Assembly (NCBI RefSeq): GCF_022354465.1
Contig: NZ_CP092361.1
Location: 248,001-312,000 of the forward strand
Source: Wielerella bovis
GTDB lineage: Bacteria > Pseudomonadota > Gammaproteobacteria > Burkholderiales > Neisseriaceae
Reading direction: 5' to 3'
DNA length: 64,000 bases
This document shows, piece after piece, positions 8,780 through 56,990 of this stretch (position 1 is the first letter of the stretch; each line of letters opens with the position of its first letter). The notes below the pieces were generated by a model. That model saw only the letters and a list, made by a program, of their open reading frames with translations. It had not been told where the DNA came from and ran no database searches. The position numbers and the translations under genes are program-made.

Positions 8780-8889
8780 CAAAAACTTTGGGTTGCCTGA
8801 AACCTGTTCCCTCCCCCGTTGGAGACGGGGGAGGGAACAGGTTAGTGGTAACTTCAAAAAAATTGTCGTGTACTGTAAGGCAGCCTGAA
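8756..8889. repeat. Large nested inverted repeat between doxX and the M48 gene
   Basis: Outer arms 8756-8782 and 8863-8889 match at 25 of 27 positions, with a DUS at each outer end. Inside lies a second palindrome (8801-8843), a perfect 19-bp stem with a 5-nt loop, containing the G-rich CCCTCCCCC/GGGGGAGGG unit also seen near 48-55 kb. The whole could fold as a hairpin of about 130 nt and may terminate the convergent genes. Confidence 0.85.
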
Positions 8890-43644: not shown

Positions 43645-44031
43645 ATGAGTACATTTAATGGCATTGGAACGCAATTTGTTGGCGAATGCTGTCAAGAAGA
43701 AGATGGTTCGTATATTGCAACTTATTGGTTTACGATTTTACACATTCCCATTATTCCCTTTTATAGCGCACGAATTCATGGGCAATATTCAGAAGAAGTG
43801 GCAATGGGACATTCAACTTTGACAGAGTACGAAGAATTACCGTTGTATTTTCCGCAAGTGATAAGAACGTATGCTTATTTAGCCATGATTGTCGGTTTGT
43901 ATCATTTTATTCAAACTAAATTCAAAGCTGGCGATAGTAACCCACTGATTTGGATAGGTTTAGCATTACCGCTTTTAGCTTTGCCTTGGATTATGCGTTA
44001 TTTTGCACGGAAAAAAGCAGGTTGGCGTTAA
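43645..44031 (+). CDS. Membrane protein with N-terminal soluble part, unknown
   Basis: A 128-residue protein starting MSTFNGIGTQFVGECCQEED, with FTILHIPIIPFYSARI, then two membrane helices (about 72-90 and 98-118) and a basic end. The opening resembles a widespread uncharacterised family in which a short GTxFxG...PIIPxxxxRI motif precedes two C-terminal helices. ATG 43645 lies after a DUS variant. Second cargo ORF between nuoD and nuoE. Confidence 0.62.
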   Translation: MSTFNGIGTQFVGECCQEEDGSYIATYWFTILHIPIIPFYSARIHGQYSEEVAMGHSTLTEYEELPLYFPQVIRTYAYLAMIVGLYHFIQTKFKAGDSNPLIWIGLALPLLALPWIMRYFARKKAGWR

Positions 44032-44088
44032 AAATAGGCAAAACGATTTTTCAGGCAGCCTGAAAGTTATAGCTTTCTGTGAAGCCTT

Positions 44089-44114
44089 TGTAGGTCGGGC
44101 ATTCATGCCCGACG
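44089..44114. repeat. Single GTCGGGCAT palindrome
   Basis: TGTAGGTCGGGCATTCATGC followed by CCGACG; one unit of the family that occurs as doublets at 29051, 44517, 54615 and 54804. Confidence 0.8.
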
Positions 44115-44167
44115 CAACGCTGAAAATATAACGCAGTAGTTTTCAGGCTGTCTTAAAAGGAAAAATC

Positions 44168-44467
44168 ATGTTTTTTGTTTTTAATCCAATCGCTTTAGTT
44201 TTGTGCATAAGCGTCAGCATAATTTTTGGCGTGTTTTTGCGCCGTGATTTATTGGAATTTGACCGCGATACCGAAGGCGTTGCTGCTTTTGTTATGAGAA
44301 TGTTGGTATTGGGATTGACTGGTTTTTTGGCTTGGCTGCAAATGAGTGTATTGATGGACATTGCGTTTGATAAAACAAGCGAAAATATCGCTTCAATGAA
44401 AATCATGTTGGCGTTCCCTATTATGTCGTTGATATTAACATGGGCAATTTCTCGACATTTAAATTGA
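44168..44467 (+). CDS. Small three-helix membrane protein, unknown
   Basis: A 99-residue protein with helices at about 3-22, 43-65 and 77-95 and a charged first loop RRDLLEFDRDTEG. AAAAGGA precedes ATG 44168. No family recognised. Third cargo ORF between nuoD and nuoE, flanked by DUS and by GTCGGGCAT palindromes on both sides. Confidence 0.6.
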   Translation: MFFVFNPIALVLCISVSIIFGVFLRRDLLEFDRDTEGVAAFVMRMLVLGLTGFLAWLQMSVLMDIAFDKTSENIASMKIMLAFPIMSLILTWAISRHLN

Positions 44468-44516
44468 ATCACTTTCAGGCTGCCTGAAAGTGAAATAAAC
44501 CATAATTTTATTTAGT

Positions 44517-44588
44517 TGTAGGTCGGGCATTTATGCCCGACATAATGCGCGGTAATGAATCATGTCGGGCATAAATGCCCGAACTACA
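44517..44588. repeat. GTCGGGCAT palindrome doublet
   Basis: TGTAGGTCGGGCATTTATGC and its inverse (ending GAACTACA) surround a spacer of about 20 bases. Same arrangement as at 29051. Confidence 0.85.
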
Positions 44589-44632
44589 AATTGTTATGTA
44601 CGGGCAGGCAGCCTGAAAACAGGAAAATCAAA

Positions 44633-45031
44633 ATGTTTAAGAAAATTTTATTGTTAATCGCAGCTTTATCAACCGCCGCTTGTATGACGACACAAACACC
44701 GATTGCAGCACCCAAACAACCCATTATTCGTATTTTTGAATTGGTAATTAAACCTGAAAATTTAACTGAATTTAATGAATTAGGGAAACACAACATCACG
44801 CAATCGGTGAATACCGAAAAAGGTGTTTTAGCGATGTATGTGCTTGCTGATAAAGAACAAAGCAATAAATTGTACGTTGTGGAAGCCTATGCCGATGAAG
44901 CTGCTTATCAAGAACATCGCCAATCGCCACATTTTCAAAAATGGTTAAATGGCGCGAAAGACATGATTGTGTCGCGCAAAGTGGTGGAAACCAACCCTGT
45001 GATTTTTGGCTCAAAAGCAGTTGCACCATAA
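44633..45031 (+). CDS. Lipoprotein with antibiotic biosynthesis monooxygenase (ABM)-like domain
   Basis: A 132-residue lipoprotein: signal and lipobox STAAC (Cys 17), then a dimeric alpha+beta barrel of ABM type (about 30-120) with RIFELVIKPENLTEF, TEKGVLAMYVLADKE, LYVVEAYADEAAYQEHRQSPHFQKW. Secreted ABM-like lipoproteins are common but of unknown function. ATG 44633 with AGGAAA upstream. Fourth cargo ORF before nuoE; an N. meningitidis-type DUS follows its stop. Confidence 0.75.
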   Translation: MFKKILLLIAALSTAACMTTQTPIAAPKQPIIRIFELVIKPENLTEFNELGKHNITQSVNTEKGVLAMYVLADKEQSNKLYVVEAYADEAAYQEHRQSPHFQKWLNGAKDMIVSRKVVETNPVIFGSKAVAP

Positions 45032-45035
45032 TTTC

Positions 45036-45047
45036 ATGCCGTCTGAA
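45036..45047 (+). repeat. Neisseria AT-DUS 12-mer (ATGCCGTCTGAA)
   Basis: Exact meningococcal/gonococcal dialect, different from the AGGCAGCCTGAA dialect used elsewhere here. Confidence 0.9.
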
Positions 45048-45079
45048 ACCTGAATTTATTATTTTATTAGGATTACAAA

Positions 45080-45553
45080 ATGTTATCCGCACAATCATTA
45101 AAAGAAATTGACATTGAATTGGCAAAATACCCCGCCGAGCAACGCCGCAGCGCAGTGATGGGCGCATTGCGTATCGCGCAAACTGAATTGGGCTGGCTGA
45201 AACCCGAAACCATTGAATTTGTGGCAAATTACATCGGCATACCCGCGATTGCCGCCTATGAAGTGGCGACTTTCTACAATATGTACGATTTAAAACCCGT
45301 GGGCAAATACAAATTGACGGTTTGCACCAATTTGCCGTGCGCCTTGCGTGGCGGCGTGGACGCGGGCGAATACCTGAAAGAAAAACTCGGCATTGGCTAT
45401 GGCGAAACCACCCCAGACGGCAAATTCACGCTGGTTGAAGGCGAGTGCATGGGCGCGTGTGGCGATGCCCCCGTTATGTTGTTGAACAATCACAAAATGT
45501 GCAGCTTTATGGACGCAGCAGCGATTGATAAGAAATTGGCGGAATTGCAGTAA
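45080..45553 (+). CDS. nuoE: NADH-quinone oxidoreductase subunit E
   Basis: 24-kDa subunit carrying 2Fe-2S cluster N1a. Thioredoxin-like fold with ligands in VCTNLPCALRGG and EGECMGACGDAPVMLLN. 157 aa is normal. TTAGGA before the ATG. Separated from nuoD by about 2 kb of cargo. Confidence 0.97.
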   Translation: MLSAQSLKEIDIELAKYPAEQRRSAVMGALRIAQTELGWLKPETIEFVANYIGIPAIAAYEVATFYNMYDLKPVGKYKLTVCTNLPCALRGGVDAGEYLKEKLGIGYGETTPDGKFTLVEGECMGACGDAPVMLLNNHKMCSFMDAAAIDKKLAELQ

Positions 45554-45611
45554 AGGTTTTTCAGGCTGCCTGAAATGAAGTTCGGCGTAGCTAAAACCAC
45601 ACTACGCCGTC

Positions 45612-45631
45612 ATTCCCGCGTAGGCGGGAAT
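45612..45631. repeat. dRS3-like palindrome upstream of the GIY-YIG gene
   Basis: ATTCCCGCGTAGGCGGGAAT, the 20-bp dRS3 form, followed by CCAAAGTTGGG. Confidence 0.85.
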
Positions 45632-45711
45632 CCAAAGTTGGGCTGCACCAACTTACAATTTAATAAACATAAATTAATAAAAAATTTTCAGGCAGCCTGA
45701 AAGGTTACAGA

Positions 45712-46023
45712 ATGAATCAGCACCCACTCGCACGGCAACCTGTTGTTTACATTTTGGCAAGTGGGCGTAATGGGACTTTGTATATTGGCGTTACCATGAA
45801 TTTGCCTGAACGCATTTGGCAACATAAACAAGGCGTTTCGCCTGATGGTTTTACAGCACAATATGGCGTAGATAAATTGGTTTGGTATGAATGCTTTGCT
45901 ACGATGACCGAAGCGATTACCAAAGAAAAAGCCATGAAAAAATGGCGCAGAGAATGGAAAATTCGTTTAATTGAAGAACAAAATCCTGATTGGTTGGATT
46001 TATTTGGTGGATTGGTGGCGTGA
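45712..46023 (+). CDS. GIY-YIG nuclease domain protein
   Basis: A single-domain GIY-YIG endonuclease of 103 aa. VYILASGRNGTLYIGVTMNLPERIWQHK gives the GIY-YIG strands (here VYI and LYIGV) with catalytic Arg, and ITKEKAMKKWRREWKIRLIEEQNPDW carries the catalytic Glu and a basic helix. It belongs to the small family related to the site-specific single-strand nuclease called Ssn in Neisseria, as I recall. It sits between nuoE and nuoF, bracketed by dRS3 palindromes at 45612, 46068 and 46269. Confidence 0.88.
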   Translation: MNQHPLARQPVVYILASGRNGTLYIGVTMNLPERIWQHKQGVSPDGFTAQYGVDKLVWYECFATMTEAITKEKAMKKWRREWKIRLIEEQNPDWLDLFGGLVA

Positions 46024-46067
46024 GATTTCAGGCAGCCTGAAACCTTTACAAAATCACCAGTATCGTC

Positions 46068-46288
46068 ATTCCCGCGTAGGCGGGAATCCAAGGTTGGGTT
46101 GTGAAATATTTGTTTTTTAGGCAAATATCGATGACGGTAGTTTTGATATTTCAGGCAGCCTGAAAAATTTTCGTATCAGCAAGAATCCAAAATTGGGTCG
46201 CATTGACCAAAAATTGAATAAGCAAATAGTTGAATTAAAAAATAGAAGTTACCTAATCTCAAAGTTGGATTCCCGCCTGCGCGGGAAT
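46068..46288. repeat. dRS3 inverted pair (NIME-type) downstream of the GIY-YIG gene
   Basis: dRS3 units at 46068-46087 and, inverted, 46269-46288, with GGATTCC/GGAATCC and AAGGTTGGG/CAAAGTTGG flanks also mirrored. The spacer has a DUS and no ORF. With 45612 they bracket the GIY-YIG gene. Confidence 0.85.
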
Positions 46289-46368
46289 GATGGCAGTGTG
46301 AGAGATTGTTGGCAATAAACAAATTGATTTTTCAGGCTGCCTGAAAATGAAATAAATAGGTAGAAAAC

Positions 46369-47670
46369 ATGGCAATTTATCAATCAGGCGTGATTTTTGA
46401 AAACGTCCCCACACAAAACCCCGATTGTTGGACGCTCGCGGCTTACCAAGCGCGTGGCGGTTACAGCGCGTTACGCAAAATTTTGACCGAAAAAATCGCG
46501 CAAAACGACATCATTGACGAAGTGAAAACGTCCGCTTTGCGCGGTCGTGGCGGTGCAGGTTTCCCGACTGGCTTGAAATGGAGCTTTATGCCACGCTCGT
46601 TCCCAGGGGCGAAATATGTGGTCTGCAACACGGACGAAGGCGAACCAGGCACATTCAAAGACCGCGACATCATCATGTACAACCCCCACGCGCTGATTGA
46701 AGGCATGATTATTGCTGGCTACGCGATGGGTGCGGAAGCAGGCTACAACTACATTCATGGCGAAATTTTTGAAGGCTATCAACGCTTTGAAGCCGCCCTT
46801 GCCGAAGCCCGTCAAGCTGGCTTTTTGGGCAAAAACATCATGGGTTTGGGCTTTGATTTTGAGCTGTTCGCGCATCATGGCTATGGCGCGTACATTTGTG
46901 GCGAAGAAACCGCCTTGCTGGAAAGTTTGGAAGGCAAAAAGGGGCAGCCGCGTTTCAAACCACCATTCCCAGCGTCTTTCGGTTTGTACGGCAAACCCAC
47001 GACCATTAACAACACGGAAACTTTTGCGTCCGTGCCGTTCATCATCAAAGATGGCGGACAAAAATTCTTGGAGCAGGGCGTGGAAGGTGCAGGCGGCACC
47101 AAACTGTTTTCCATTTCGGGACACGTTGAACGCCCTGGGAATTACGAAGTGCCGCTTGGTACGCCATTTTCCGAATTGTTGGCGATGGCTGGCGGTATGC
47201 GTGGCGGCAAGAAATTGAAAGCGGTGATTCCTGGGGGGGCGTCTGCGCCTGTGCTGCCTGCGGATATTATGATGGCGTGCAATATGGACTACGATTCCAT
47301 TGCCAAAGCAGGTTCTATGCTCGGTTCGGGCGCGGTGATTGTGATGGACGAAGATGTCTGTATGGTCAAAGCGTTGGAGCGTTTGGCGTATTTCTACCAC
47401 GAAGAATCGTGCGGTCAATGTACGCCTTGCCGTGAAGGCACGGGCTGGCTGTATCGCGTGATACACCGCATTGCGACTGGCAAAGGTCGCCCCGATGATT
47501 TGGATTTGCTGGACAGCGTGGGCAACAATATGGCTGGACGCACCATTTGTGCGCTGGCGGACGCGGCTGTGTTCCCTGTTCGCAGTTTTACCAAGCATTT
47601 CCGCGCTGAATTTGAGCATTATATTGAGCATGGCAAGCCGATGAAAGAACATAAGTGGGGTGGGTGGTAA
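46369..47670 (+). CDS. nuoF: NADH-quinone oxidoreductase subunit F
   Basis: 51-kDa subunit binding NADH and FMN and holding cluster N3. [19 protein letters not shown] (NADH/FMN site), [34 protein letters not shown] and [17 protein letters not shown] (4Fe-4S ligands) are all intact. 433 aa is normal. Long open frames on the opposite strand here are shadows of its GC-rich codons. Confidence 0.97.
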
Positions 47671-47714
47671 ACCCATTTTCAGGCAGCCTGAAATGAAATT
47701 TGCGGAAAAATATC

Positions 47715-48158
47715 ATGGCAAAATACATTGTGAATTTGGGCGATGAAATTTCTGTTCATGAAAAAATATTTTTGGCAGCGATTGTTCAGGCAATTTCTGA
47801 TGATGAAATTCGTCAATATATTCAAAATTTAATTTGCCATTCTTATGTGGTTTGTCGGACGGCAACACAGGGTTATGGTATGTATATTGATTTTAAAACT
47901 GTTATACCAGAAACTTTCAGGCAGCCTGTACCCCAAAAATTGCTTAATGCAACACGTTTAATTGAAACAGCATTTGAAAATTGTCAGATTGATGAAATAC
48001 CGAATAATCAAGTTTATTTGATGTTGTATCTGACTGATGATAAAACCGAATTGGATTTTTTAGAAATCACATCATTAGAATTTGATTTTCATGAAACCAA
48101 ATTGGCACATTTGATTATGGATACCATGTTTTTCAGGCAGCCTGAAACAGTAAAATAA
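47715..48158 (+). CDS. Hypothetical protein in the nuoF-nuoG gap
   Basis: A soluble 147-residue protein MAKYIVNLGDEISVHEKIFL with no family that I recognise. Two in-frame DUS supply FRQPVP (about residue 70) and the C-terminal FFRQPETVK. AT-rich relative to nuoF. ATG 47715 is chosen; an upstream TTG lacks signals. It reads with nuo. Confidence 0.55.
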   Translation: MAKYIVNLGDEISVHEKIFLAAIVQAISDDEIRQYIQNLICHSYVVCRTATQGYGMYIDFKTVIPETFRQPVPQKLLNATRLIETAFENCQIDEIPNNQVYLMLYLTDDKTELDFLEITSLEFDFHETKLAHLIMDTMFFRQPETVK

Positions 48159-48163
48159 CCAGC

Positions 48164-48209
48164 AACCTGTCCCCTCCCCCGACTGGCGGGGGAGGGTTAG
48201 GGTGGGGGT
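48164..48209. repeat. G-rich palindrome R2, head outward, left of DUF559 copy 1
   Basis: ACCTGTCCCCTCCCCC, loop GACTGG, then CGGGGGAGGGTTAGGGTGGG. The asymmetric tail (GGTTAGGGTGGGGG) faces the DUF559 gene, the head (AACCTGT) faces away. Confidence 0.85.
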
Positions 48210-48288
48210 GGTTCTATCGGGTTAAGTTATTTTTGAATATCAATGCTCTAACCCACAACAGTCCTCCCCATAGAGGATGGGAGTAGGT

Positions 48289-48300
48289 TTCAGACGGCAT
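48289..48300 (-). repeat. Neisseria AT-DUS 12-mer
   Basis: TTCAGACGGCAT on the plus strand, exact inverse of ATGCCGTCTGAA, just upstream of DUF559 copy 1. Confidence 0.9.
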
Positions 48301-48637
48301 AAACTGTTACCGCAAGATTGAAAAGGCAGCCTGAAAATGCGCCATAGCACCAGAAATCCAGCATTACAAGAAAATGCGAAAAATTTAAAACAAAACATGA
48401 CCCTTACCGAACAACGCTTGTGGTATCACTTACGCGGTAAAAGATTGAACGGCATCAAATTCCGTCGACAACAGACAATAGGCAGTTACATCGCTGATTT
48501 TGTCAGCATGGAACACAAATTGATTATTGAGTTAGACGGTGGGCAACACACCGAACAAATCGCTTACGACAATGCGCGAACCGAGTTTTTAAACAATCAA
48601 GGCTATCGTGTTGTGCGATTTTGGAATAATGAAGTTT

Positions 48638-48744
48638 TATAGTGAATTCAATTTAAACCAGTACAGCGTTGCCAGCTTCCTTATGTACTAGATGTACACG
48701 GCGGTCGCTGTCGCCTTGTCCTGATTTAAATTGAATCCACTATA
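48638..48744. mobile_element. Correia-like MITE, 107 bp, inside DUF559 copy 1
   Basis: Same ends and core as the 39606 and 61791 copies. Removing 105 bp restores GTTTTACAAAAT, matching GTTTTGCAGGAT of the intact paralogue, so the target was TA and was duplicated. Confidence 0.9.
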
Positions 48745-48796
48745 CAAAATACCGAAGCAGTTTTAGAACAGATTTTGAAATATTGTGGCAGCGATT

Positions 48797-48845
48797 GCCC
48801 CCACCCTAACCCTCCCCCGTTGGAGACGGGGGAGGGGATAGGTTA
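48797..48845. repeat. G-rich palindrome R3, right of DUF559 copy 1
   Basis: CCCCCACCCTAACCCTCCCC, loop around TTGGAG, GGGGGAGGGGATAGGTT. The tail faces the gene, the head faces away, mirror image of R2. Confidence 0.85.
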
Positions 48846-48977
48846 GTGGAAGATTGACTATTTCAGGCTGCCTGAAAAATCTGTCCCAAAAAAATATTAA
48901 TATTAAACGCTGCCCCTTTTTTCAGGCAGCCTGAAACAAATTTCTTTTAAATATAAAAAAGTAACTAGGAAACAACC

Positions 48978-51224
48978 ATGTTACAAATCCAAATAGACGG
49001 TAAACAAACCCAAGTGAAACAAGGCACGACCGTGATTGAAGCGGCGCACCAGCTTGGCACTTACATTCCGCATTTTTGTTATCACAAAAAGCTGTCCATT
49101 GCCGCCAACTGCCGCATGTGCTTGGTGGACGTGGAAAAAGCCCCCAAACCCCTGCCCGCCTGTGCCACGCCTGTTACAGACGGCATGGTGGTGCATACCC
49201 ATTCCGCCAAAGCCAAACAGGCGCAACAAGGCGTAATGGAATTTTTGCTGATAAATCACCCACTTGATTGCCCCATCTGCGACCAAGGTGGCGAATGCCA
49301 GTTGCAAGATTTGGCGGTGGGCTACGGCAAATCAGGCAGCCGCTATCAAGAAGAAAAACGCGCCGTAGTCGGCAAAGACATGGGGCCTTTGGTTTCGGCT
49401 GCCGAAATGAGCCGTTGCATTCATTGCACCCGTTGTGTGCGTTTCACGGAAGAAATCGCGGGCATGCAAGAAATCGGCATGGCTAATCGCAGCGAATTTT
49501 CCGAAATCATGCCCTTTATCGGCAAGGCGGTGGAAACCGAATTGTCGGGCAATGTGATTGATTTGTGTCCCGTTGGCGCATTGACCAGCAAGCCGTATCG
49601 TTATGATTCGCGCTCGTGGGAATTGTCGCGCCGCAAATCCATTTCCGCGCACGATGCTTTGGGTTCAAACCTGATTGTGCAAACGAAAGACCACACGGTG
49701 CGCCGCGTGTTACCGCTTGAAAATGAAGCGATTAACGAATGCTGGATTGCCGACCGCGACCGTTTCGCCTACGAAGGTTTGTACCACGAAAGCCGTTTGA
49801 AAACGCCCAAAATCAAACACGGTGGCGAATGGCAAGATGTGGATTGGACAACCGCTTTGGAATATGTGCGCCATACCCTTGATTGCATTGCTAAAGAAGA
49901 CGGCAAAGAGCAAATTGCCGTGTGGGCAAACCCGATGAATACGGTGGAAGAACTGTATTTGGCGAAAAAATGGGCGGACGGTTTCGGCGTGAAAGCGATG
50001 ACTTCGCGTTTGCGTGAAAACGACAGCCGTCTTTCAGGCAGCCTGCAAGGGGCGCAATGGCTGGGTCAAACGATTGAACAGCTTGCGGCTTGCGAAGCGG
50101 TGTTGATTGTGGGCGCGAATTTGCGTAAAGAACAGCCGCTTTTGACTGCCCGTCTGCGCCGTTCTGCCAAAGAAGGCATGGCGTTGAGCGTGGTCGCTGC
50201 CAACCGCGAAGAATTGCATATGCCCTTGTTGGCGCAAGACATTGTGCATCCGCATAAATGGGCGGATTACTTGGCGCATTTGCCCGAACACGTTTCAGGC
50301 AGCCTGAAAAATGCCGAACGTGCCGCGATTATTTTGGGCGCGGACGTGCAAAATCATCACGATTACGCAGGCATTTACGCAGCCGCGCAAACTTTGGCGG
50401 ACGAATTGGGCGCGACTTTGGGCGTTTTGCCGCAAGCCGCCAACAGCGTGGGCGCGGACATCATCGGTTTCAACCAAACCAATATTGCCGATTTGCTTGC
50501 CGAGCCGAAAAAAGCCGTGTTGCTGTTCAACATTGAGCCAGATGTGGACGTGTTGGGTGGCGAACAAGCAACAGCCAGTCTGAAACAAGCCGCCACCGTT
50601 ATGGCATTTACCGCTTACGAAAGCGAAACTTTACGCGAAGTTTGCGACATTTTGCTGCCAATCGTGCCATTTACCGAAACATCGGGCAGCTTTATCAATA
50701 TGGAAGGGCGTTTGCAATCGTTCCATGGCGTTGTGAAAACTTTGGGCGAAGCGCGTCCATTGTGGAAAATTTTGCGCGTGTTGGGCAATGTGTTTGACTT
50801 GCAAGGCTTTGATTTCAATAGCAGCGAAGAAGTGTTGCGCGAAGCCATTTGTGCCGACATGCTGCCTGAAAAACTGAACAACCGCAGCACTTGGCACGGC
50901 AATGCCGTTTCAGGCAGCCTGCACAAAATCGTGCGCGTGGGTGGCGTGGGCATTTATCATGGCGACCCGATTGTGCGCCGAGCCGCGTCTTTGCAACAAA
51001 CCAGCCACGCGGCAGTGCCAGTGGCGCGTGTTCATGCGAACACTTTGGCGACATTCGGTTTGGCTGATGGCGATGACGCGCTTGCCATGCAAAACGGTGC
51101 GCGTGTGCGCGTATCGGTGGTGGCGGACAATTCGCTGCCTGAAAACGTGGTTTACTTGCCCTTGCACGCGGCAAACGCGGCTTTGGGCGGATTGATGAAC
51201 AGCATTGAATTGGCGAGGGCGTAA
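48978..51224 (+). CDS. nuoG: NADH-quinone oxidoreductase subunit G
   Basis: Largest peripheral complex I subunit. The N-terminal 2Fe-2S domain ([29 protein letters not shown]), the N5 cluster His-Cys region ([18 protein letters not shown]) and the N4 cluster ([19 protein letters not shown]) are all present, followed by the molybdopterin-oxidoreductase-like domain to about residue 600. 748 aa; shorter than E. coli NuoG but normal for beta-proteobacteria. Several DUS are read in frame (for example SLKNAER, GSLHK). Confidence 0.96.
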
Positions 51225-51226
51225 TC

Positions 51227-52276
51227 ATGCAAGAGTGGTTTCAAAGCCTGTTGGGGCAAGATTTGGGCTTGATTGTGTCCATTATCGTGAAAATCGTGTT
51301 GATTTTAGCCCCATTGATTTTGACTGTGGCGTATCTCACTTATTTTGAACGCAAAGTGATTGGTTTCATGCAGTTGCGTACAGGCCCCAATGTTGTGGGA
51401 CCTTGGGGCTTGATTCAGCCTTTTGCGGACGTGTTGAAACTTTTGTTCAAAGAAGTAACGCGCCCGACTTTGTCCAATAAAGCCTTGTTTTACATTGGAC
51501 CAATGTTGTCGCTCGCGCCAGCATTTGCGGCTTGGGCGGTGATTCCGTTTAATGAAGAATGGGTTTTGACCAATGTGGACGCAGGTTTGCTGTATATTTT
51601 GATGATTACATCGTTGTCGGTTTACGGCGTGATTATTGCGGGCTGGGCGAGTAATTCCAAATACGCCTTTTTGGGCGCGATGCGTTCGTCTGCACAAACC
51701 ATTTCGTATGAAATTGCCATGTCAGCCGCTTTGGTGTGTGTGATTATGGTTTCAGGCAGCCTGAATTTTAAAGAGATTGTGGCAGCACAAGCGAGCGGCA
51801 TTGCGGGAGGTTCTATTTTCTCGTGGAACTGGTTTACTTTGTTCCCCGCGTTTTTGGTTTACCTGATTTCGGCGGTGGCGGAAACCAACCGCGCCCCATT
51901 TGACGTGGCGGAAGGCGAGAGTGAGATTGTCGCAGGTTTCCACGTTGAGTATTCGGGTTTTGCCTTTGCCTTATTTTTCTTGGCGGAATACATTTTCATG
52001 ATTTTGATTGGCGCATTGACGGCAATCATGTTTTTGGGTGGCTGGTTGTCGCCTTTCCCACAAAGCTGGGGCTGGATTGGTGCACCGAGCGCGTTTTGGA
52101 TGTTCGCAAAAATGGCGTTTGTGTTGTTCGGCTATTTGTGGATACGCGCCACATTCCCACGCTACCGCTACGACCAAATCATGCGTTTGGGCTGGAAAGT
52201 GTTGATTCCAGTTGGTTTTATCTGCATTACAGTATTGGCTGGCTGGATGGCTTCGCCATTGAGTTTGTGGAAATAA
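51227..52276 (+). CDS. nuoH: NADH-quinone oxidoreductase subunit H
   Basis: Membrane subunit linking the quinone site to the proton path. [76 protein letters not shown] and [18 protein letters not shown] are conserved. 349 aa, eight helices. Starts two bases after the nuoG stop. Confidence 0.97.
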
Positions 52277-52279
52277 TTT

Positions 52280-52320
52280 CCCCCACCCTAACCCTCCCCC
52301 GTTTGGGACGGGGGATAGAT
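52280..52320. repeat. G-rich palindrome R4 after nuoH
   Basis: Tail CCCCCACCCTAA to the left, then CCCTCCCCCGT, loop, ACGGGGGATAGATTGCAG. Forward orientation; the right arm is slightly degenerate. Confidence 0.75.
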
Positions 52321-52403
52321 TGCAGTAAACCAAATGGGATTGCAATCAATTAAAATGTTAGGAAAAATATTTTCAGGTAGCCTGAAACCGTAAAATGACC
52401 AGA

Positions 52404-52451
52404 AACCTGTTCCCTCCCCCGTCTCAAACGGGGGAGGGCTAGGGAGGGGGC
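52404..52451. repeat. G-rich palindrome R5, left of DUF559 copy 2
   Basis: AACCTGTTCCCTCCCCCGT, loop CTCAA, ACGGGGGAGGGCTAGGGAGG. Head outward, tail toward the gene, as for R2. Confidence 0.85.
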
Positions 52452-52455
52452 AAAA

Positions 52456-52821
52456 ATGCCAGAAACAACCCGAAACCGAATTTTAAAACCCCATGCCCAA
52501 AATCTCCGCAAAAACATGACATTGGCGGAACAGCGTTTGTGGTATTTTTTGCGGAATAGGCAGTTGAACGGCATCAAATTTCGCAGACAACAAATCATTG
52601 GGCATTACATTGCCGATTTTGTCAGCATGGAACACAAATTGATTATTGAATTGGACGGCGGACAACATGCCGAACAAATTATTTATGATAATCAAAGAAC
52701 TGAATTTTTGAATGAACAAGGTTACCGCGTTATCCGTTTTTGGAATAATGAAGTTTTGCAGGATACGGAAGCTGTGCTAAACGAAATACTGAAAGCGTGT
52801 GGCGGTTTACCCCCACCCTAA
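52456..52821 (+). CDS. DUF559 endonuclease-like protein, copy 2 (intact)
   Basis: A 121-residue DUF559 protein, related to Vsr and other PD-(D/E)XK-type nucleases. NLRKNMTLAEQRLWYFLRNRQLNGIKFRRQQIIGHYIADFVSMEHKLIIELDGGQHAEQ, then GYRVIRFWNNEVLQDTEAVLNEILKACGG. Acidic D/E in IIELDGGQH and the FRRQ basic patch are likely active-site parts. Its stop (CCC CCA CCC TAA, giving the final PPP) is contributed by the tail of palindrome R6, and it starts 5 bases after R5, so gene and palindromes form one compact cassette. Between nuoH and nuoI. Confidence 0.88.
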   Translation: MPETTRNRILKPHAQNLRKNMTLAEQRLWYFLRNRQLNGIKFRRQQIIGHYIADFVSMEHKLIIELDGGQHAEQIIYDNQRTEFLNEQGYRVIRFWNNEVLQDTEAVLNEILKACGGLPPP

Positions 52822-52856
52822 CCCTCCCCCGCAAGCAGGGGAGGGGACAGGTTGCC
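52810..52856. repeat. G-rich palindrome R6, right of DUF559 copy 2
   Basis: Tail CCCCCACCCTAA overlapping the gene end, then CCCTCCCCC, loop GCAAGC, GGGGAGGGGACAGGTT. Mirror image of R5. Confidence 0.85.
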
Positions 52857-52969
52857 GCAGCGTAAATATTGTTGGCATATCCGCCAAAAGATTTTTCAGG
52901 CAGCCTGAAACTCATTTTATGATTGATTTTTAAATAAAAAACCACTACCAAAAGGGTAGGAACAACATT

Positions 52970-53449
52970 ATGGCAAATTTAGTCAAAACCTTTTTATTGG
53001 GCGAACTGGTCAAAGGCATGGGCGTAACGCTCAAAAACTTTTTCGCTCGCAAAGACACGATTTACTTCCCCGAAGAAAAAACGCCCCAATCCGTGCGTTT
53101 TCGTGGACTGCACGCGCAACGCCGTTACCCCAATGGCGAAGAGCGTTGCATTGCCTGCAAATTGTGCGAAGCGGTTTGCCCCGCCATGGCAATCAACATT
53201 GAATCCGAGCAGCGCGAAGACGGCACACGCCGCACCACGCGCTACGACATTGATTTAACCAAATGTATTTTCTGCGGATTTTGCGAAGAAGCCTGCCCTG
53301 TGGACGCGATTGTGGAAACCCATATTTTTGAGTATCACGGTGAAAAACGCGGCGATTTGCACATGACCAAACCCATTTTGCTGGCAATTGGCGACAAATA
53401 CGAAGCCGAAATCGCCAAACGCAAAGCGGCTGACGCGCCATATCGTTGA
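52970..53449 (+). CDS. nuoI: NADH-quinone oxidoreductase subunit I
   Basis: Ferredoxin-like subunit with two 4Fe-4S clusters (N6a, N6b): [17 protein letters not shown] and [19 protein letters not shown]. 159 aa is normal. AGGGTAGGAA lies upstream of the ATG. Preceded by the DUF559 cassette and followed by an empty palindrome doublet. Confidence 0.97.
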
Positions 53450-53456
53450 GCCATTT

Positions 53457-53554
53457 CTCCCTCCCCTGCTTGCGGGGGAGGGTTGGGGTGGGGGCAAAAC
53501 CAACAATCTAACCCCCACCCTAGCCCTCCCCCTTCATAGGGGGAGGGGACAGAT
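53457..53554. repeat. G-rich palindrome doublet R7-R8 without a gene
   Basis: R7 (53457-53494) is reversed and R8 (53510-53554) forward, tail to tail, separated by 15 bases. Same head-out arrangement as around the DUF559 genes but with nothing between. Confidence 0.85.
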
Positions 53555-53633
53555 TGCGATAAGCCCATAAAGATTTTGCAGTGATTTTCAGGCTGCCTGA
53601 AACCCTATTTTTGATTAAAAAGAAAGCATAAAC

Positions 53634-54284
53634 ATGACTTTCCAACTTGCTTTATTTTACTTTATCGCTGCCGTGATTTTGTTCGGCGCGGTCAAAACCG
53701 TTACGGCAAAAAACCCCGTTCATGCGTCCCTGTATTTGGTGCTGACGTTTTGCATGTCCGCGATGATGTGGATGCTCATGCAAGCGGAATTTTTGGGCAT
53801 CACGCTGGTGGTGGTGTATGTGGGCGCGGTGATGGTGCTGTTCCTGTTTGTCGTGATGATGTTGAACATTGACGCGGAAGAAATGCGTAAAGGTTTCTGG
53901 CGCAACGCCCCTGCCGCCATGACGGTGGGCGTGTTGATGGCTTTGGTGCTGATTGCCGTGTTAATCGCGCCCGACACCAATTTGTCGGTGTATGGCGAAA
54001 TGAAAGACATTCCTGCCGATTACAGCAATGTGCGCGATTTGGGTAAGCAAATTTACACGACTTATCTGTTGCCCTTTGAATTGGCGGCGGTTTTGCTCGT
54101 GTTGGGCATGGTGGCAGCGATTGCGTTGGTACACCGCAAGTCCACCAATGAAAAATACATCAACCCTGCCGACCAAGTGAAAGTGAACGCGGCAGAAGGA
54201 CGTTTACGCATGGTCAAAATGGCTGCCGAAGTGCAAACCCCAAAAAACACGCAGCCTGAAAACGCAGAGGAGGGCAAAGCATGA
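53634..54284 (+). CDS. nuoJ: NADH-quinone oxidoreductase subunit J
   Basis: Five-helix membrane subunit. [62 protein letters not shown] is the conserved block. 216 aa; the hydrophilic tail ends [15 protein letters not shown], the QPEN part coming from a DUS. The stop overlaps the nuoK start (ATGA). Confidence 0.96.
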
Positions 54285-54586
54285 TTACGATTACACATTA
54301 TTTGGTGTTGGCGGCATTGCTGTTTGGCATCAGCGCGATGGGCATTTTTATGAACCGCAAAAATGTGCTGGTTTTGCTGATGTCTATTGAGTTGATGTTG
54401 TTGGCGGTAAACTTTAATTTTATTGCCTTTTCGCAGTATTTAGGCGACACGGCTGGACAGATTTTCGTGTTTTTCGTGCTGACGGTGGCGGCGGCAGAAA
54501 GCGCGATTGGTTTGGCGATTATGGTGCTGGTGTTCCGCAACCGACAAACCATTAACGTTACTGAATTGAATACGCTGAAAGGCTAA
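54281..54586 (+). CDS. nuoK: NADH-quinone oxidoreductase subunit K
   Basis: Three-helix subunit with the proton-channel glutamates: [17 protein letters not shown] and [18 protein letters not shown]. 101 aa. GAGG upstream, ATGA overlap with nuoJ. Confidence 0.97.
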
Positions 54587-54614
54587 TTGGGATTTTCAGG
54601 CAGCCTGAAAATAG

Positions 54615-54707
54615 TGTAGGTCGGGCATTTATGCCCGACAATCAAAACACGACAAATTCAAGTCGGGCATAAATGCCCGACCTACGGAAAATATTTTCAG
54701 ACGGCAT
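54615..54707. repeat. GTCGGGCAT doublet with trailing AT-DUS, unit 1
   Basis: Doublet 54615-54685 followed by AAAATATTTTCAGACGGCAT; the last 12 bases (54696-54707) are an inverse meningococcal DUS. Near-identical to the unit at 54804. Confidence 0.85.
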
Positions 54708-54745
54708 TAATGCTTTCAGGCTGCCTGAAACTGTTTATTTATCTA

Positions 54746-54788
54746 CAATCTGTTCCCTCCCCCGCAAGCAGAGGAGGGGAAAATTGCA
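54746..54788. repeat. Degenerate G-rich palindrome R9
   Basis: ATCTGTTCCCTCCCCCGCAA, then GCAGAGGAGGGGAAAATTGC. The right arm has mismatches and no long tail. Confidence 0.6.
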
Positions 54789-54803
54789 GCAACATAATAA
54801 ATA

Positions 54804-54893
54804 GTAGGTCGGGCATTGATGCCCGACGCAAAAAAAACCGAAATAATGTCGGGCATAAATGCCCGACCTACGAGAAATATTTTCAGACGGCAT
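54804..54893. repeat. GTCGGGCAT doublet with trailing AT-DUS, unit 2
   Basis: Doublet 54804-54871, then AAATATTTTCAGACGGCAT ending at 54893 (AT-DUS 54882-54893). Together with unit 1 and R9 it fills the 388-bp gap between nuoK and nuoL; no gene is seen there. Confidence 0.85.
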
Positions 54894-54974
54894 CAATAAT
54901 TTTAGGCTGCCTGAAAACAACCCAAATAAAAATATAGCCAAAAAAGTTTTTAAAAATCAAAAAGGTTCACTTCC

Positions 54975-56990
54975 ATGAACGACATGACTTTATATTTAAT
55001 CATCGCGCTCACGCCATTGGTGGGCTGTTTGCTGGCAGGCTTGTTTGGCAACCAAATCGGACGGCGTGGCGCACACACCGCCACCATTTCAGGTGTGGCG
55101 ATTTCCGCGCTGTTGTCCGCCTATGTGCTGTACGGCTTTGCGACTGGCACACGCGCCAAGTTTGACGAAAACGTGTACACATGGCTCACCATGGGCGGTG
55201 TGGACTTTTCAGTCGGCTTTCTCGTGGACAGCCTGACCGCCATGATGATGGTGGTGGTAACGTCCGTGTCGCTGATGGTACACATCTATACCATTGGTTA
55301 TATGCACGATGAAGAAGTCGGCTATCAACGCTTTTTCAGCTACATCTCCTTGTTTACATTCAGCATGTTGATGTTGATTATGTCCAATAACTTTATTCAA
55401 CTGTTTTTCGGTTGGGAAGCGGTGGGCTTGGTGTCATATTTGCTGATTGGTTTCTATTTCAAACGCGACAGCGCGATTTTCGCCAACTTAAAAGCGTTTC
55501 TCGTGAACCGCGTGGGCGATTTCGGCTTTTTGTTGGGCATCGGTTTGGTGCTGGGCTATTTTGGTGGCAGCCTGCGTTATGCGGACGTGTTCGCCTATTT
55601 GCCCAATGTGGTGGGTAGCACTTTATTTGGCACGGATTTGATTACCGTCACTTGCTTGCTGCTGTTTGTGGGCGCAATGGGTAAATCCGCGCAATTTCCT
55701 TTGCACGTTTGGCTGCCTGATTCTATGGAAGGCCCAACGCCGATTTCCGCGCTGATTCACGCGGCGACCATGGTTACCGCAGGTCTGTTTATGGTGTCGC
55801 GCATGTCGCCCATGTACGAAATGAGTACAACCGTGTTGAGCGTGATTATGGTCATTGGCGCGATTACCGCCTTGTTTATGGGTTTCTTGGGCACGATTCA
55901 AAACGACATCAAGCGCGTGATTGCGTATTCCACTTTGTCGCAACTGGGCTATATGACGGTGGCGTTGGGCGTGTCTGCCTATTCCATTGCCATGTTCCAT
56001 GTGATGACACACGCATTCTTTAAAGCATTGCTGTTCTTGGCGGCAGGCAGCGTGATTATCGGCATGCACCACGACCAAGATATGCGAAATATGGGCAATT
56101 TGCGTAAATACATGCCGATTACTTGGATAACCATGTTGTTGGGCAATTTGTCGCTGATTGGCACACCGTTTTTCTCGGGTTTCTATTCCAAAGATTCCAT
56201 TATTGAAGCCGTGAAATTCAGCAATTTGACGGGTAGCGGTTTTGCCTATTTTGCCGTGTTGGCGAGCGTGTTTGTAACCGCGTTTTATGCGTTCCGTCAA
56301 TACTTTATCGTGTTTCACGGCAAAGAGCGTTGGCGAGAAAATCATCACGCCCACGATGAACATCACGATGACGCACATCATCACGGTTTGTCGCCCAATG
56401 ACAATCCGCACGAAAGCCCTTGGGTGGTAACTTTCCCCTTGTTGTTCTTGGCTGTGCCGTCTGTGATTATTGGCGCATTGACGATTAAACCTTTGTTGTA
56501 TGGCGATTTTTTCAAAGACGTGATTTATGTGAATCACGAAGCGCACCCAGTCATGACGATTATGGCGGAACACTATCACGGCATTTTCGGCATGGTAACG
56601 CACAGTTTGGTTAGCCCTGTGTTGTACTTGGCGATTGCGGGTGTGGTGGCAGCGTGGTTCTTGTATGTGAAAGCACCGCATTTGCCCACGAAAATTCAGG
56701 CAGCCTGCAAACCGATTTATAACTTGTTGGACAACAAATACTATTTGGACATCATCTACTTCAACGTGTTCGCCAAAGGCAGCCGCAAATTGGGCGAGCT
56801 GTTCTGGAAAGTGGGCGACACCATGATTATTGACAACGGCATTGTGAACAATTCCGCCAAACTGGTCGGCAACATCGCCGCGCAAGTCCGCAAAGCGCAG
56901 ACGGGTTTCATCTACACCTATGCGGCTGTGATGGTGGCTGGGGTGCTGGTGTTGATTGTGGCGTTTTTCTGGAATTTGTGGTTTAAATGA
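54975..56990 (+). CDS. nuoL: NADH-quinone oxidoreductase subunit L
   Basis: Largest antiporter-like membrane subunit with the long lateral helix. FFGWEAVGLVSYLLIGFYF, FPLHVWLPDSMEGPTPISALIHAATMVTAGLFMVSR and AYSTLSQLGYMTVALG are the core; a His-rich loop HHAHDEHHDDAHHHG lies near residues 455-470, a feature I recall in other beta-proteobacterial NuoL. 671 aa. Confidence 0.97.
   Translation: MNDMTLYLIIALTPLVGCLLAGLFGNQIGRRGAHTATISGVAISALLSAYVLYGFATGTRAKFDENVYTWLTMGGVDFSVGFLVDSLTAMMMVVVTSVSLMVHIYTIGYMHDEEVGYQRFFSYISLFTFSMLMLIMSNNFIQLFFGWEAVGLVSYLLIGFYFKRDSAIFANLKAFLVNRVGDFGFLLGIGLVLGYFGGSLRYADVFAYLPNVVGSTLFGTDLITVTCLLLFVGAMGKSAQFPLHVWLPDSMEGPTPISALIHAATMVTAGLFMVSRMSPMYEMSTTVLSVIMVIGAITALFMGFLGTIQNDIKRVIAYSTLSQLGYMTVALGVSAYSIAMFHVMTHAFFKALLFLAAGSVIIGMHHDQDMRNMGNLRKYMPITWITMLLGNLSLIGTPFFSGFYSKDSIIEAVKFSNLTGSGFAYFAVLASVFVTAFYAFRQYFIVFHGKERWRENHHAHDEHHDDAHHHGLSPNDNPHESPWVVTFPLLFLAVPSVIIGALTIKPLLYGDFFKDVIYVNHEAHPVMTIMAEHYHGIFGMVTHSLVSPVLYLAIAGVVAAWFLYVKAPHLPTKIQAACKPIYNLLDNKYYLDIIYFNVFAKGSRKLGELFWKVGDTMIIDNGIVNNSAKLVGNIAAQVRKAQTGFIYTYAAVMVAGVLVLIVAFFWNLWFK

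What the first reader, a model, noticed from the sequence alone, without database searches (positions are those of the whole stretch)
48164..52856. DUF559 nuclease genes packaged between inverted G-rich palindromes: a REP/RAYT-like system with a different enzyme
Both DUF559 genes have the same architecture: palindrome with its head outward and tail inward, gene, then the mirror-image palindrome (R2-gene-R3 at 48164-48845; R5-gene-R6 at 52404-52856). In copy 2 only 4 bases separate R5 from the ATG, and the R6 tail supplies the stop codon, so gene and palindromes look like one unit. The same palindrome also occurs as a gene-free pair (53457-53554) and singly (8801, 52280, 54746). This is the layout of RAYT transposase genes and their REPIN non-autonomous pairs, but here the enzyme is a Vsr/PD-(D/E)XK-like DUF559 protein. 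I infer that DUF559 binds or nicks this hairpin and drives its spread.
Basis: partly seen in the sequence, partly recalled or inferred. Interest (0 to 1): 0.85.

Follow-up and report, generated by a model that had tools for sequence, protein, structure and literature searches.

The report
Nuclease gene driving triplex-hairpin repeats
A gene for a predicted DNA-cutting enzyme sits between two mirror-image hairpin repeats here and in bacteria of many phyla, and it is likely the missing engine that spreads these repeats, whose E. coli version folds into a triplex in the test tube.

Summary
Both DUF559 genes lie between inverted G-rich hairpins, and 58 tail motifs occur in the 2.29-Mb genome, mostly as REPIN-like pairs.
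- Copy 1 is broken by a Correia-like element.
- Of 80 DUF559 loci picked by protein similarity alone, 50 have such hairpins on both sides; 0 of 564 pseudo-genes in the same loci do.
- In 83 family genomes, at least 10 tails occur in 13 of 15 with DUF559 and 5 of 68 without. RAYT presence predicts this poorly, and the two RAYTs here have other palindromes.
- The hairpin is a known repeat: the intrastrand triplex motif (TM/PIT) of E. coli and over 260 genomes, whose authors found no mobility gene beside it. E. coli's DUF559 gene, ycjD, lies 167 bp from one.
- The tail mirrors the stem and covaries with it.

I infer that this Vsr/homing-endonuclease-like nuclease recognises the folded ends and spreads the pairs. 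No cut was shown and no clean empty site of a gene-bearing unit was found. Half of the gene-free pairs here sit inside another element. It works like REPIN-RAYT but is not one: no HUH enzyme, no GTAG tag.

The parts
48165..48208 (+). 5' hairpin of unit 1, G-rich tail (GGGGGAGGGTTAGGGTGGGGG) pointing to the gene
48337..48642 (+). DUF559 gene copy 1, cut short (101 aa)
48638..48744 (.). Correia/NEMIS-like element (TATAGTG...CACTATA; label recalled) inside copy 1
   Evidence: sequence; inverted repeat I11
48798..48845 (-). 3' hairpin of unit 1, tail pointing to the gene
52280..52322 (-). single hairpin with tail, just after nuoH
52404..52450 (+). 5' hairpin of unit 2, tail ends 5 bases before the ATG
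52456..52821 (+). DUF559 gene copy 2, intact, 121 aa; stop codon lies in the tail of the 3' hairpin
52810..52855 (-). 3' hairpin of unit 2; its tail encodes the protein's last residues (PPP-stop)
53457..53555 (.). gene-free inverted pair (REPIN-like) between nuoI and nuoJ
54746..54790 (.). single hairpin without tail
8801..8835 (.). single hairpin without tail, inside a CAGTACACGACA-ended element

Best explanation
DUF559 genes and a pair of inverted G-rich hairpins form one recurring unit across bacterial phyla, and the encoded Vsr-like nuclease likely recognises the hairpin ends, predicted to fold as intrastrand triplexes, and so spreads the gene-free hairpin pairs. Shown: the unit; matching left and right copies at a locus; the copy-number correlation; triplex capacity kept by covariation; opposite end types within pairs. 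Inferred: a PD-(D/E)XK enzyme, probably a dimer, nicks single-stranded or cruciform DNA at the hairpin feet when a replication fork exposes them. The freed folded segment (gene-bearing, or a gene-free deletion derivative) is then copied or pasted into another intergenic site with help from replication and repair, the nuclease itself having no known joining step. Single hairpins would be decay products formed by deletion between the two C-rich arms.
For: 80 loci chosen by protein similarity only: hairpins on both sides in 50, one side in 19, none in 11; control pseudo-genes 0 of 564 both, 10 of 564 either. Strictly convergent tails at the nearest hairpins in 21 of 80 against 0 of 564. In the 50 loci, left and right hairpin-plus-tail resemble each other (mean local score 22.2) far more than partners shuffled among loci (11.4, sd 0.6, maximum 13.5 in 2000). 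Copy number, 83 family genomes: 10 or more tails in 13 of 15 DUF559+ and 5 of 68 DUF559-, p 1.5e-9; within one genus medians 27 and 0, p 2.4e-6, while RAYT there gives p 0.51. 276 class genomes: 3 or more in 30 of 56 against 23 of 220, p 2.5e-11. A second stem type gives 3 or more copies in 7 of 15 DUF559+ and 0 of 68 DUF559- genomes. Tail mirrors the stem arm: mean score 6.26 for 111 hairpins; arm read directly 5.14; tails swapped 4.59, sd 0.12, maximum 5.0 in 1000. Pairs join one T-type and one C-type tail in 21 of 22 classifiable pairs here (24 in all) and in 28 of 28 pairs of the G066 listing, as in 5 of 5 E. coli pairs (PMC4666352). At the same nuoH-nuoI site G067 keeps both hairpins around an internally deleted DUF559 gene, a gene-bearing to gene-free intermediate. 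E. coli ycjD (DUF559) has a decayed hairpin at its 3' end and TM no. 9 lies 167 bp downstream. A TM pair is present or absent at hrpB-mrcB among E. coli strains. Fold: 3hrl, homing endonuclease I-Bth0305I; Vsr weaker.
Against: No cleavage, binding or movement was shown. No clean empty site for a DUF559-bearing unit: at nuoF-nuoG of Neisseria-like genomes presence/absence is bounded by DNA-uptake sequences (motif recalled), so transformation could explain it. The one empty TM site has no evident target duplication. 12 of 24 pairs here (4 more one-sided) lie in an element with CAGTACACGACA ends that elsewhere holds GTAG REPINs, so part of the spread may be its work. 16 of 68 DUF559- family genomes have 3 or more tails, G066 102. 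RAYT+ genomes also reach 3 or more somewhat more often (20 of 40 against 11 of 43, p 0.025). 11 of 80 loci have no hairpin (six of them Chloroflexi); by script 10 of 19 family loci have them on one side only and 2 on none. The locus's own 3' hairpin is the best or tied-best match of the 5' one in only 20 of 50 loci, since many loci share common types. Enterobacterial ycjD-type loci have none upstream. Two O157:H7 rows without ycjD at its locus keep 5 places of the TM-bearing query. Copies per genome are few (1-4) and relatives of the query are rare on plasmids or phages (45 of 72,556 and 3 of 50,697 records).
Confidence: 0.52

Rival explanations
1. Homing or gene-drive reading: DUF559 is a relative of the EDxHD homing endonuclease I-Bth0305I that cuts unoccupied sites, and the unit or pair is copied in by double-strand-break repair; hairpins mark or protect the occupied site.
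For: Second-best solved relative by sequence (3r3p, E 0.0011) and by fold (E 8e-5). Few copies per genome.
Against: Pairs sit at many different sites of the genome, which sequence-specific homing does not explain; no intron or intein context seen.
Confidence: 0.18
2. Caretaker reading: DUF559 is a structure-processing repair nuclease that removes triplex or cruciform blocks, retained in genomes with many such repeats, and does not move them.
For: Vsr-like fold (E 0.023); Caulobacter DUF559 protein VsrA is linked to a DNA damage response (PMC12907096, passages); correlation with repeat number.
Against: Does not explain why the gene itself lies between inverted copies in 50 of 80 loci in many phyla.
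Confidence: 0.15
3. Passenger reading: the hairpin pairs are spread by something else (the CAGTACACGACA-ended element, RAYTs in trans, or DNA-uptake-sequence recombination) and DUF559 rides along.
For: 12 of 24 pairs inside that element; the same slot also holds GTAG REPINs. RAYT+ genomes show a weak excess (p 0.025).
Against: The association with DUF559 spans phyla; own RAYTs carry other palindromes; within DUF559- genomes RAYT has no clear effect (p 0.13); no relative of the two own RAYTs within 30 palindrome loci of six DUF559- genomes, best E 0.44.
Confidence: 0.12
4. Ordinary reading: the hairpins are terminators or mRNA-end structures that happen to bracket a small gene.
For: Enterobacterial ycjD-type genes keep one hairpin at the 3' end.
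Against: Holder et al. report that PIT/TM motifs had no promoter or terminator activity in earlier work (PMC4666352); the hairpins also bracket the 5' side and occur gene-free in many copies; by eye no T-run follows those of the two units.
Confidence: 0.03

Closest known systems
REPIN / RAYT (REP-associated tyrosine transposase, TnpA-REP)
   Same: Inverted hairpin pairs with inward tails, tens of copies; few enzyme genes per genome lying next to matching repeats; singles look like decay (compare PMC3116915, passages).
   Different: Enzyme is PF04480 (PD-(D/E)XK), not a HUH/Y1 transposase; no GTAG tag; tail is a stem mirror suited to a triplex. RAYT REPs coexist here as a separate system.
Intrastrand triplex motif (TM, TMECO) / PIT elements of E. 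coli and others (PMC4666352)
   Same: Same hairpin, spacer and mirror tail; pairs of one A-type and one B-type motif.
   Different: No enzyme had been linked to it; the authors state they never found mobility genes around it. Here a DUF559 gene is linked across phyla and lies near TM no. 9 as ycjD.
DUF559 / YcjD family and NGO0050 (PDB 3hrl)
   Same: Family members by sequence and fold.
   Different: Known as unknown function or Vsr-like endonuclease; no repeat partner found in the papers listed.
Vsr endonuclease and homing endonuclease I-Bth0305I
   Same: Predicted fold (Vsr at E 0.023, I-Bth0305I at 8e-5).
   Different: Vsr acts in very-short-patch repair (recalled); I-Bth0305I is a mobile-intron protein. 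No flanking palindromic repeats that I recall.
CGTC/dRS3 palindromes of Neisseriae (PMC3733652, passages)
   Same: Palindromic repeats without a known transposase.
   Different: Other sequence.

Membership tests
REPIN/RAYT | HUH (Y1) tyrosine transposase PF01797 as the linked gene | tested here: not met
   Linked genes match PF04480 and weakly MTES_1575, no PF01797; the two PF01797 genes lie elsewhere with other palindromes
REPIN/RAYT | GTAG tetranucleotide at the hairpin foot | tested here: not met
   GTAG within 8 nt 5' of the hairpin in 1 of 119 hairpins beside DUF559 and 0 of 82 loose matches in the own-genome stretches
REPIN/RAYT | Inverted doublets as the repeated unit | tested here: met
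   24 close pairs in the own-genome stretches, 28 in the G066 listing
REPIN/RAYT | Enzyme gene next to its own repeat type | tested here: met
REPIN/RAYT | Enzyme cleaves its repeat | not testable with these tools
   No assay possible
TM/PIT intrastrand triplex motif | Stem, short loop, third strand that mirrors the purine arm | tested here: met
   Mirror test; the window version differs in stem letters from the E. coli consensus
TM/PIT intrastrand triplex motif | Folds as a triplex | not testable with these tools
   Shown in vitro for the E. coli motif by others (PMC4666352); in vivo footprinting there did not support stable triplexes
DUF559 (PF04480) | Score above curated cut-off | tested here: met
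   137.9 and 154.7 bits, cut-off 20.6
DUF559 (PF04480) | PD-(D/E)XK/Vsr-type fold | tested here: met
   Model pLDDT 85.8; 3hrl E 4.4e-9, 3r3p 8e-5, 1vsr 0.023 at rank 8
Vsr repair endonuclease | T:G mismatch nicking tied to a cytosine methylase | not tested
   No assay; methylase linkage not searched
EDxHD homing endonuclease | Resides in an intron or intein | tested here: not met
   Free-standing intergenic gene in the nuo operon
Insertion sequence | Target-site duplication at a clean empty site | tested here: inconclusive
   One gene-free TM pair has an empty allele without evident duplication; none for a gene-bearing unit

The most novel reading that the evidence does not exclude
A lone PD-(D/E)XK nuclease is a structure-specific mobiliser of DNA that folds into an intrastrand triplex: a second, independently evolved REPIN-type system, spread over many phyla and still present in E. 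coli as ycjD plus the TM/PIT repeats, which would be the first transposition-like system that I know of to read triplex ends.
Probability: 0.38. Interest if true: 0.95.

Novelty: new variant of a known kind. Interest (0 to 1): 0.82.

Why it matters
Triplex-forming TM/PIT repeats were reported in more than 260 prokaryotes (PMC4666352), and their authors found no means of spread beside them. Tying them to a DUF559 gene gives the repeats a candidate engine and gives a large family of unknown function a candidate job. The question becomes directly testable in E. coli K-12, which has both ycjD and 23 TM copies. If right, bacterial genomes hold two unrelated enzymes that maintain REPIN-like populations, side by side in this very genome, and conserved triplex capacity would be a recognition signal rather than an accident of G-richness.

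Tried and rejected
RAYT as the partner: rejected for this genome and as the better predictor, although RAYT+ genomes show a weak excess at 3 or more tails (p 0.025). A conserved tag outside the hairpin: one motif (G-run, A, then C or T) tested on 119 flanks hit 22 against a shuffled mean of 28.67, so not enriched. Nuo-operon empty sites: informative but confounded by DNA-uptake sequences and other repeats. E. coli TM number against ycjD status: ycjD found in 3,365 of 5,426 genomes; in the 60 rows that one search listed, the 37 with ycjD have 3-6 places of the query and those without mostly 2-3, but two O157:H7 rows have 5 and a gull strain 6, so phylogeny confounds this and I do not count it. 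Rfam at gathering thresholds: no match in 44000-56000. Palindrome loci of DUF559- genomes: 30 loci (five each of six genomes) hold no DUF559 relative and none of the two own RAYTs at a meaningful E; other gene families there were not examined. Weak toxin-chain matches at E near 0.1 are noise and were not followed.

Literature, held library only: DUF559 with palindromic, REP/transposase, or inverted repeats, DUF559 alone (14 papers), ycjD (8 papers), very-short-patch-repair endonuclease with palindromic (0), triplex repeats (18 papers, 15 listed), PIT/triplex/COG2852 terms (17). From titles, abstract starts and the passages read, none links DUF559 to these repeats; most were seen as listings only, so this is no proof of absence.
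Full report
WHAT IS THERE. The window (2,294,361-bp genome, one contig; window = 248001-312000) carries two DUF559 genes inside the nuo operon: one between nuoF and nuoG, one between nuoH and nuoI (nuo gene names are my recall from the translations). Each lies between two hairpins of the form CCCTCCCCCG-loop-CGGGGGAGGG with a G-rich tail such as TTAGGGTGGGGG on the inner side. Unit 2 is tight: 5 bases from tail to ATG, and the stop codon inside the 3' tail. Unit 1's gene is broken by a 107-bp Correia/NEMIS-like element (label recalled). The tail occurs 58 times in the genome at up to 3 mismatches against 1 for the reversed pattern. In the stretches fetched around these sites I find 60 tails at up to 4 mismatches, 48 of them in 24 close pairs with tails inward.

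THE LINK WITH DUF559 IS GENERAL. I fetched 80 DUF559 loci from named records by protein similarity alone (227 relatives found, best 80 kept), so flanks played no part in the choice. Polypyrimidine-loop-polypurine hairpins lie within 300 bp on both sides in 50 loci, on one side in 19 (2 upstream, 17 downstream), on neither in 11; a few loci are cut short by contig ends. The same test on 564 pseudo-genes elsewhere in these loci gives 0 on both sides and 10 on either. Loci with both sides include Proteobacteria, a Bacteroidia MAG (L035), a Dehalococcoidia MAG (L071), Melainabacteria (L041, L058), Spirochaetes (L074, L102), a Poribacteria MAG (L069) and a KSB1 MAG (L111). Six of the 11 without any are Chloroflexi (L055, L061, L090, L096, L104, L112). 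In the 50 loci left and right copies resemble each other far more than partners from other loci (mean score 22.2 against 11.4 shuffled, maximum 13.5 in 2000), although the locus's own partner is the best or tied-best in only 20 of 50 because many loci share common types. The 12 Enterobacteriaceae loci (ycjD type) differ: hairpin only downstream in 10, none in 2. In the own family 7 of 19 DUF559 loci have both sides, 10 one side, 2 none by the script; the locus of G042 is cut off and does show a 3' hairpin on reading, and that of G035 has unread bases beside the gene.

COPY NUMBER FOLLOWS DUF559, NOT RAYT. In 83 family genomes, 15 have a full DUF559 gene (E below 1e-20; weaker partial hits counted as absent). 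Three or more tails: 15 of 15 against 16 of 68; ten or more: 13 of 15 against 5 of 68 (p 1.5e-9); medians 29 and 0. A gene brings up to two hairpins of its own, so the ten-copy threshold is the fair one. Within the large genus: 13 genomes with DUF559, median 27; 33 without, median 0 (p 2.4e-6). RAYT genes (PF01797, 40 of 83 genomes): ten or more in 12 of 40 against 6 of 43 (p 0.11), three or more in 20 of 40 against 11 of 43 (p 0.025), no clear effect among DUF559- genomes (p 0.13). In 276 genomes of the class: three or more in 30 of 56 against 23 of 220 (p 2.5e-11). A different stem type reaches three or more copies in 7 of 15 DUF559+ and 0 of 68 DUF559- family genomes. The relatedness of genomes is not modelled in these p-values. 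The two RAYTs of the own genome are bracketed by GTAG-type or other palindromes and have no G-rich tail (up to 4 mismatches) in their 3.3-kb loci, so two or more separate enzyme-repeat pairings coexist.

THE REPEAT IS A KNOWN TRIPLEX MOTIF. A string search of the paper library found Holder et al. 2015 (PMC4666352; I read the abstract, passages, and sections 12, 15, 18 and the first part of 20). It describes the intrastrand triplex motif TM (earlier PIT): 23 copies in E. coli MG1655, more than 260 bacterial genomes, a stable triplex in vitro but no support for stable triplexes in vivo, always one type A with one type B in its five inverted pairs, more variable loci, and, around the sites, never any activity that provides genetic mobility. 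I tested triplex capacity across the DUF559 loci: the tail is the mirror image of the stem's purine arm (mean score 6.26 for 111 of 119 hairpins with a long enough arm; 5.14 for the arm read directly; 4.59, sd 0.12, maximum 5.0 when tails are swapped among loci). The spacer is mostly 2-4 bases, in some loci a second mini-hairpin, with the mirrored tail kept. Pairs join one C-type and one T-type tail in 21 of 22 classifiable pairs here (24 in all) and in all 28 close pairs of the G066 listing, which points to an element with distinct left and right ends. Around the two gene copies this holds for unit 2 but not for unit 1, whose tails are both T-type.

E. COLI. ycjD (b1289) is a DUF559 gene. Reading MG1655, its 3' end runs into a decayed hairpin of this type, and TM no. 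9 of Holder's table lies 167 bp downstream, beside a duplicated stretch resembling the end of ycjD. ycjD is found in 3,365 of 5,426 complete E. coli genomes; where absent the eef operon is reported in its place (PMC12817139, passages). At hrpB-mrcB the TM pair is present in MG1655 and an O157 strain, reduced to one hairpin in an O111 strain and absent in the three further strains that I fetched, a true presence/absence polymorphism without an evident target duplication. At alx-sstT two strains have a 75-bp deletion to one hairpin, and at ygfF-gcvP one strain has a fused single.

NEIGHBOURS IN THE FAMILY. Comparing nuo operons of 40 other genomes (some cut by contig ends): G067 keeps both hairpins at nuoH-nuoI around a DUF559 gene with a large internal deletion, the step from a gene-bearing to a gene-free pair; it has a full unit upstream of nuoF where the own genome has none. 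Where the own genome has a gene-free pair (nuoI-nuoJ), G066 and G067 have a different, GTAG-type pair. In G026, G027 and G030 a DUF559 gene sits between nuoF and nuoG while G013 and G017 have only 64 bp there, but uptake sequences (motif recalled) border the insert, so transformation is a fair alternative.

AGAINST THE SIMPLE READING. Twelve of 24 pairs here (four more on one side) lie in an element of about 200 bp with CAGTACACGACA ends. The same ends elsewhere enclose a single hairpin or a GTAG REPIN. Either both repeat kinds enter the same target palindrome, or that element amplified them. Genomes rich in palindromes without full DUF559 exist (G066, 102; G125, 49), though several G066 contigs start or end near palindromes.

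PROTEIN. Invariant E25, Q45, D54, E65, D67 and D78 in 34 sequences fit a PD-(D/E)XK site (assignment inferred). The model (pLDDT 85.8) matches NGO0050 (3hrl, E 4.4e-9), the homing endonuclease I-Bth0305I (8e-5) and, more weakly, Vsr (0.023, rank 8). Kosinski et al. report that a YcjD profile detects Vsr (PMC1189080, passages).

VERDICT. The pairing of DUF559 with triplex-capable REPIN-like repeats is well supported. That the nuclease spreads them is the best explanation but inferred (0.52). It works like REPIN-RAYT; it is not a member, since the enzyme and tag tests failed.

Noticed in passing
window 48638-48744: A Correia/NEMIS-like element (TATAGTG...CACTATA; label recalled) has inserted into DUF559 copy 1.
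   Followed up: partly
window 54616-54685 and 54804-54871; L133: GTAG-type REPINs matching those around one of the genome's RAYTs, so two REPIN systems coexist in one operon.
   Followed up: partly
L219-L234 (own genome, 88 ends): A slot with CAGTACACGACA inverted ends encloses a G-rich pair, a single G-rich hairpin, or a GTAG REPIN: two unrelated REPIN types in the same surroundings.
   Followed up: partly
L165 (G067), nuoH-nuoI gap: DUF559 gene with a large internal deletion between intact hairpins: a gene-free pair in the making.
   Followed up: yes
L080, L077, L070, L048, L062: In some genomes the 3-base spacer between stem and tail is replaced by a mini-hairpin.
   Followed up: partly
L204 (E. 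coli MG1655 1351205-1351407): A duplicated stretch resembling the ycjD 3' end lies next to TM no. 9, perhaps the remnant of a second DUF559 unit.
   Followed up: no
window 45712-46023 and 47700-48158: Other small ORFs occupy the nuo gaps here, and different ones in relatives; the nuoF-nuoG gap looks like a hot spot for small inserts bordered by uptake sequences.
   Followed up: no
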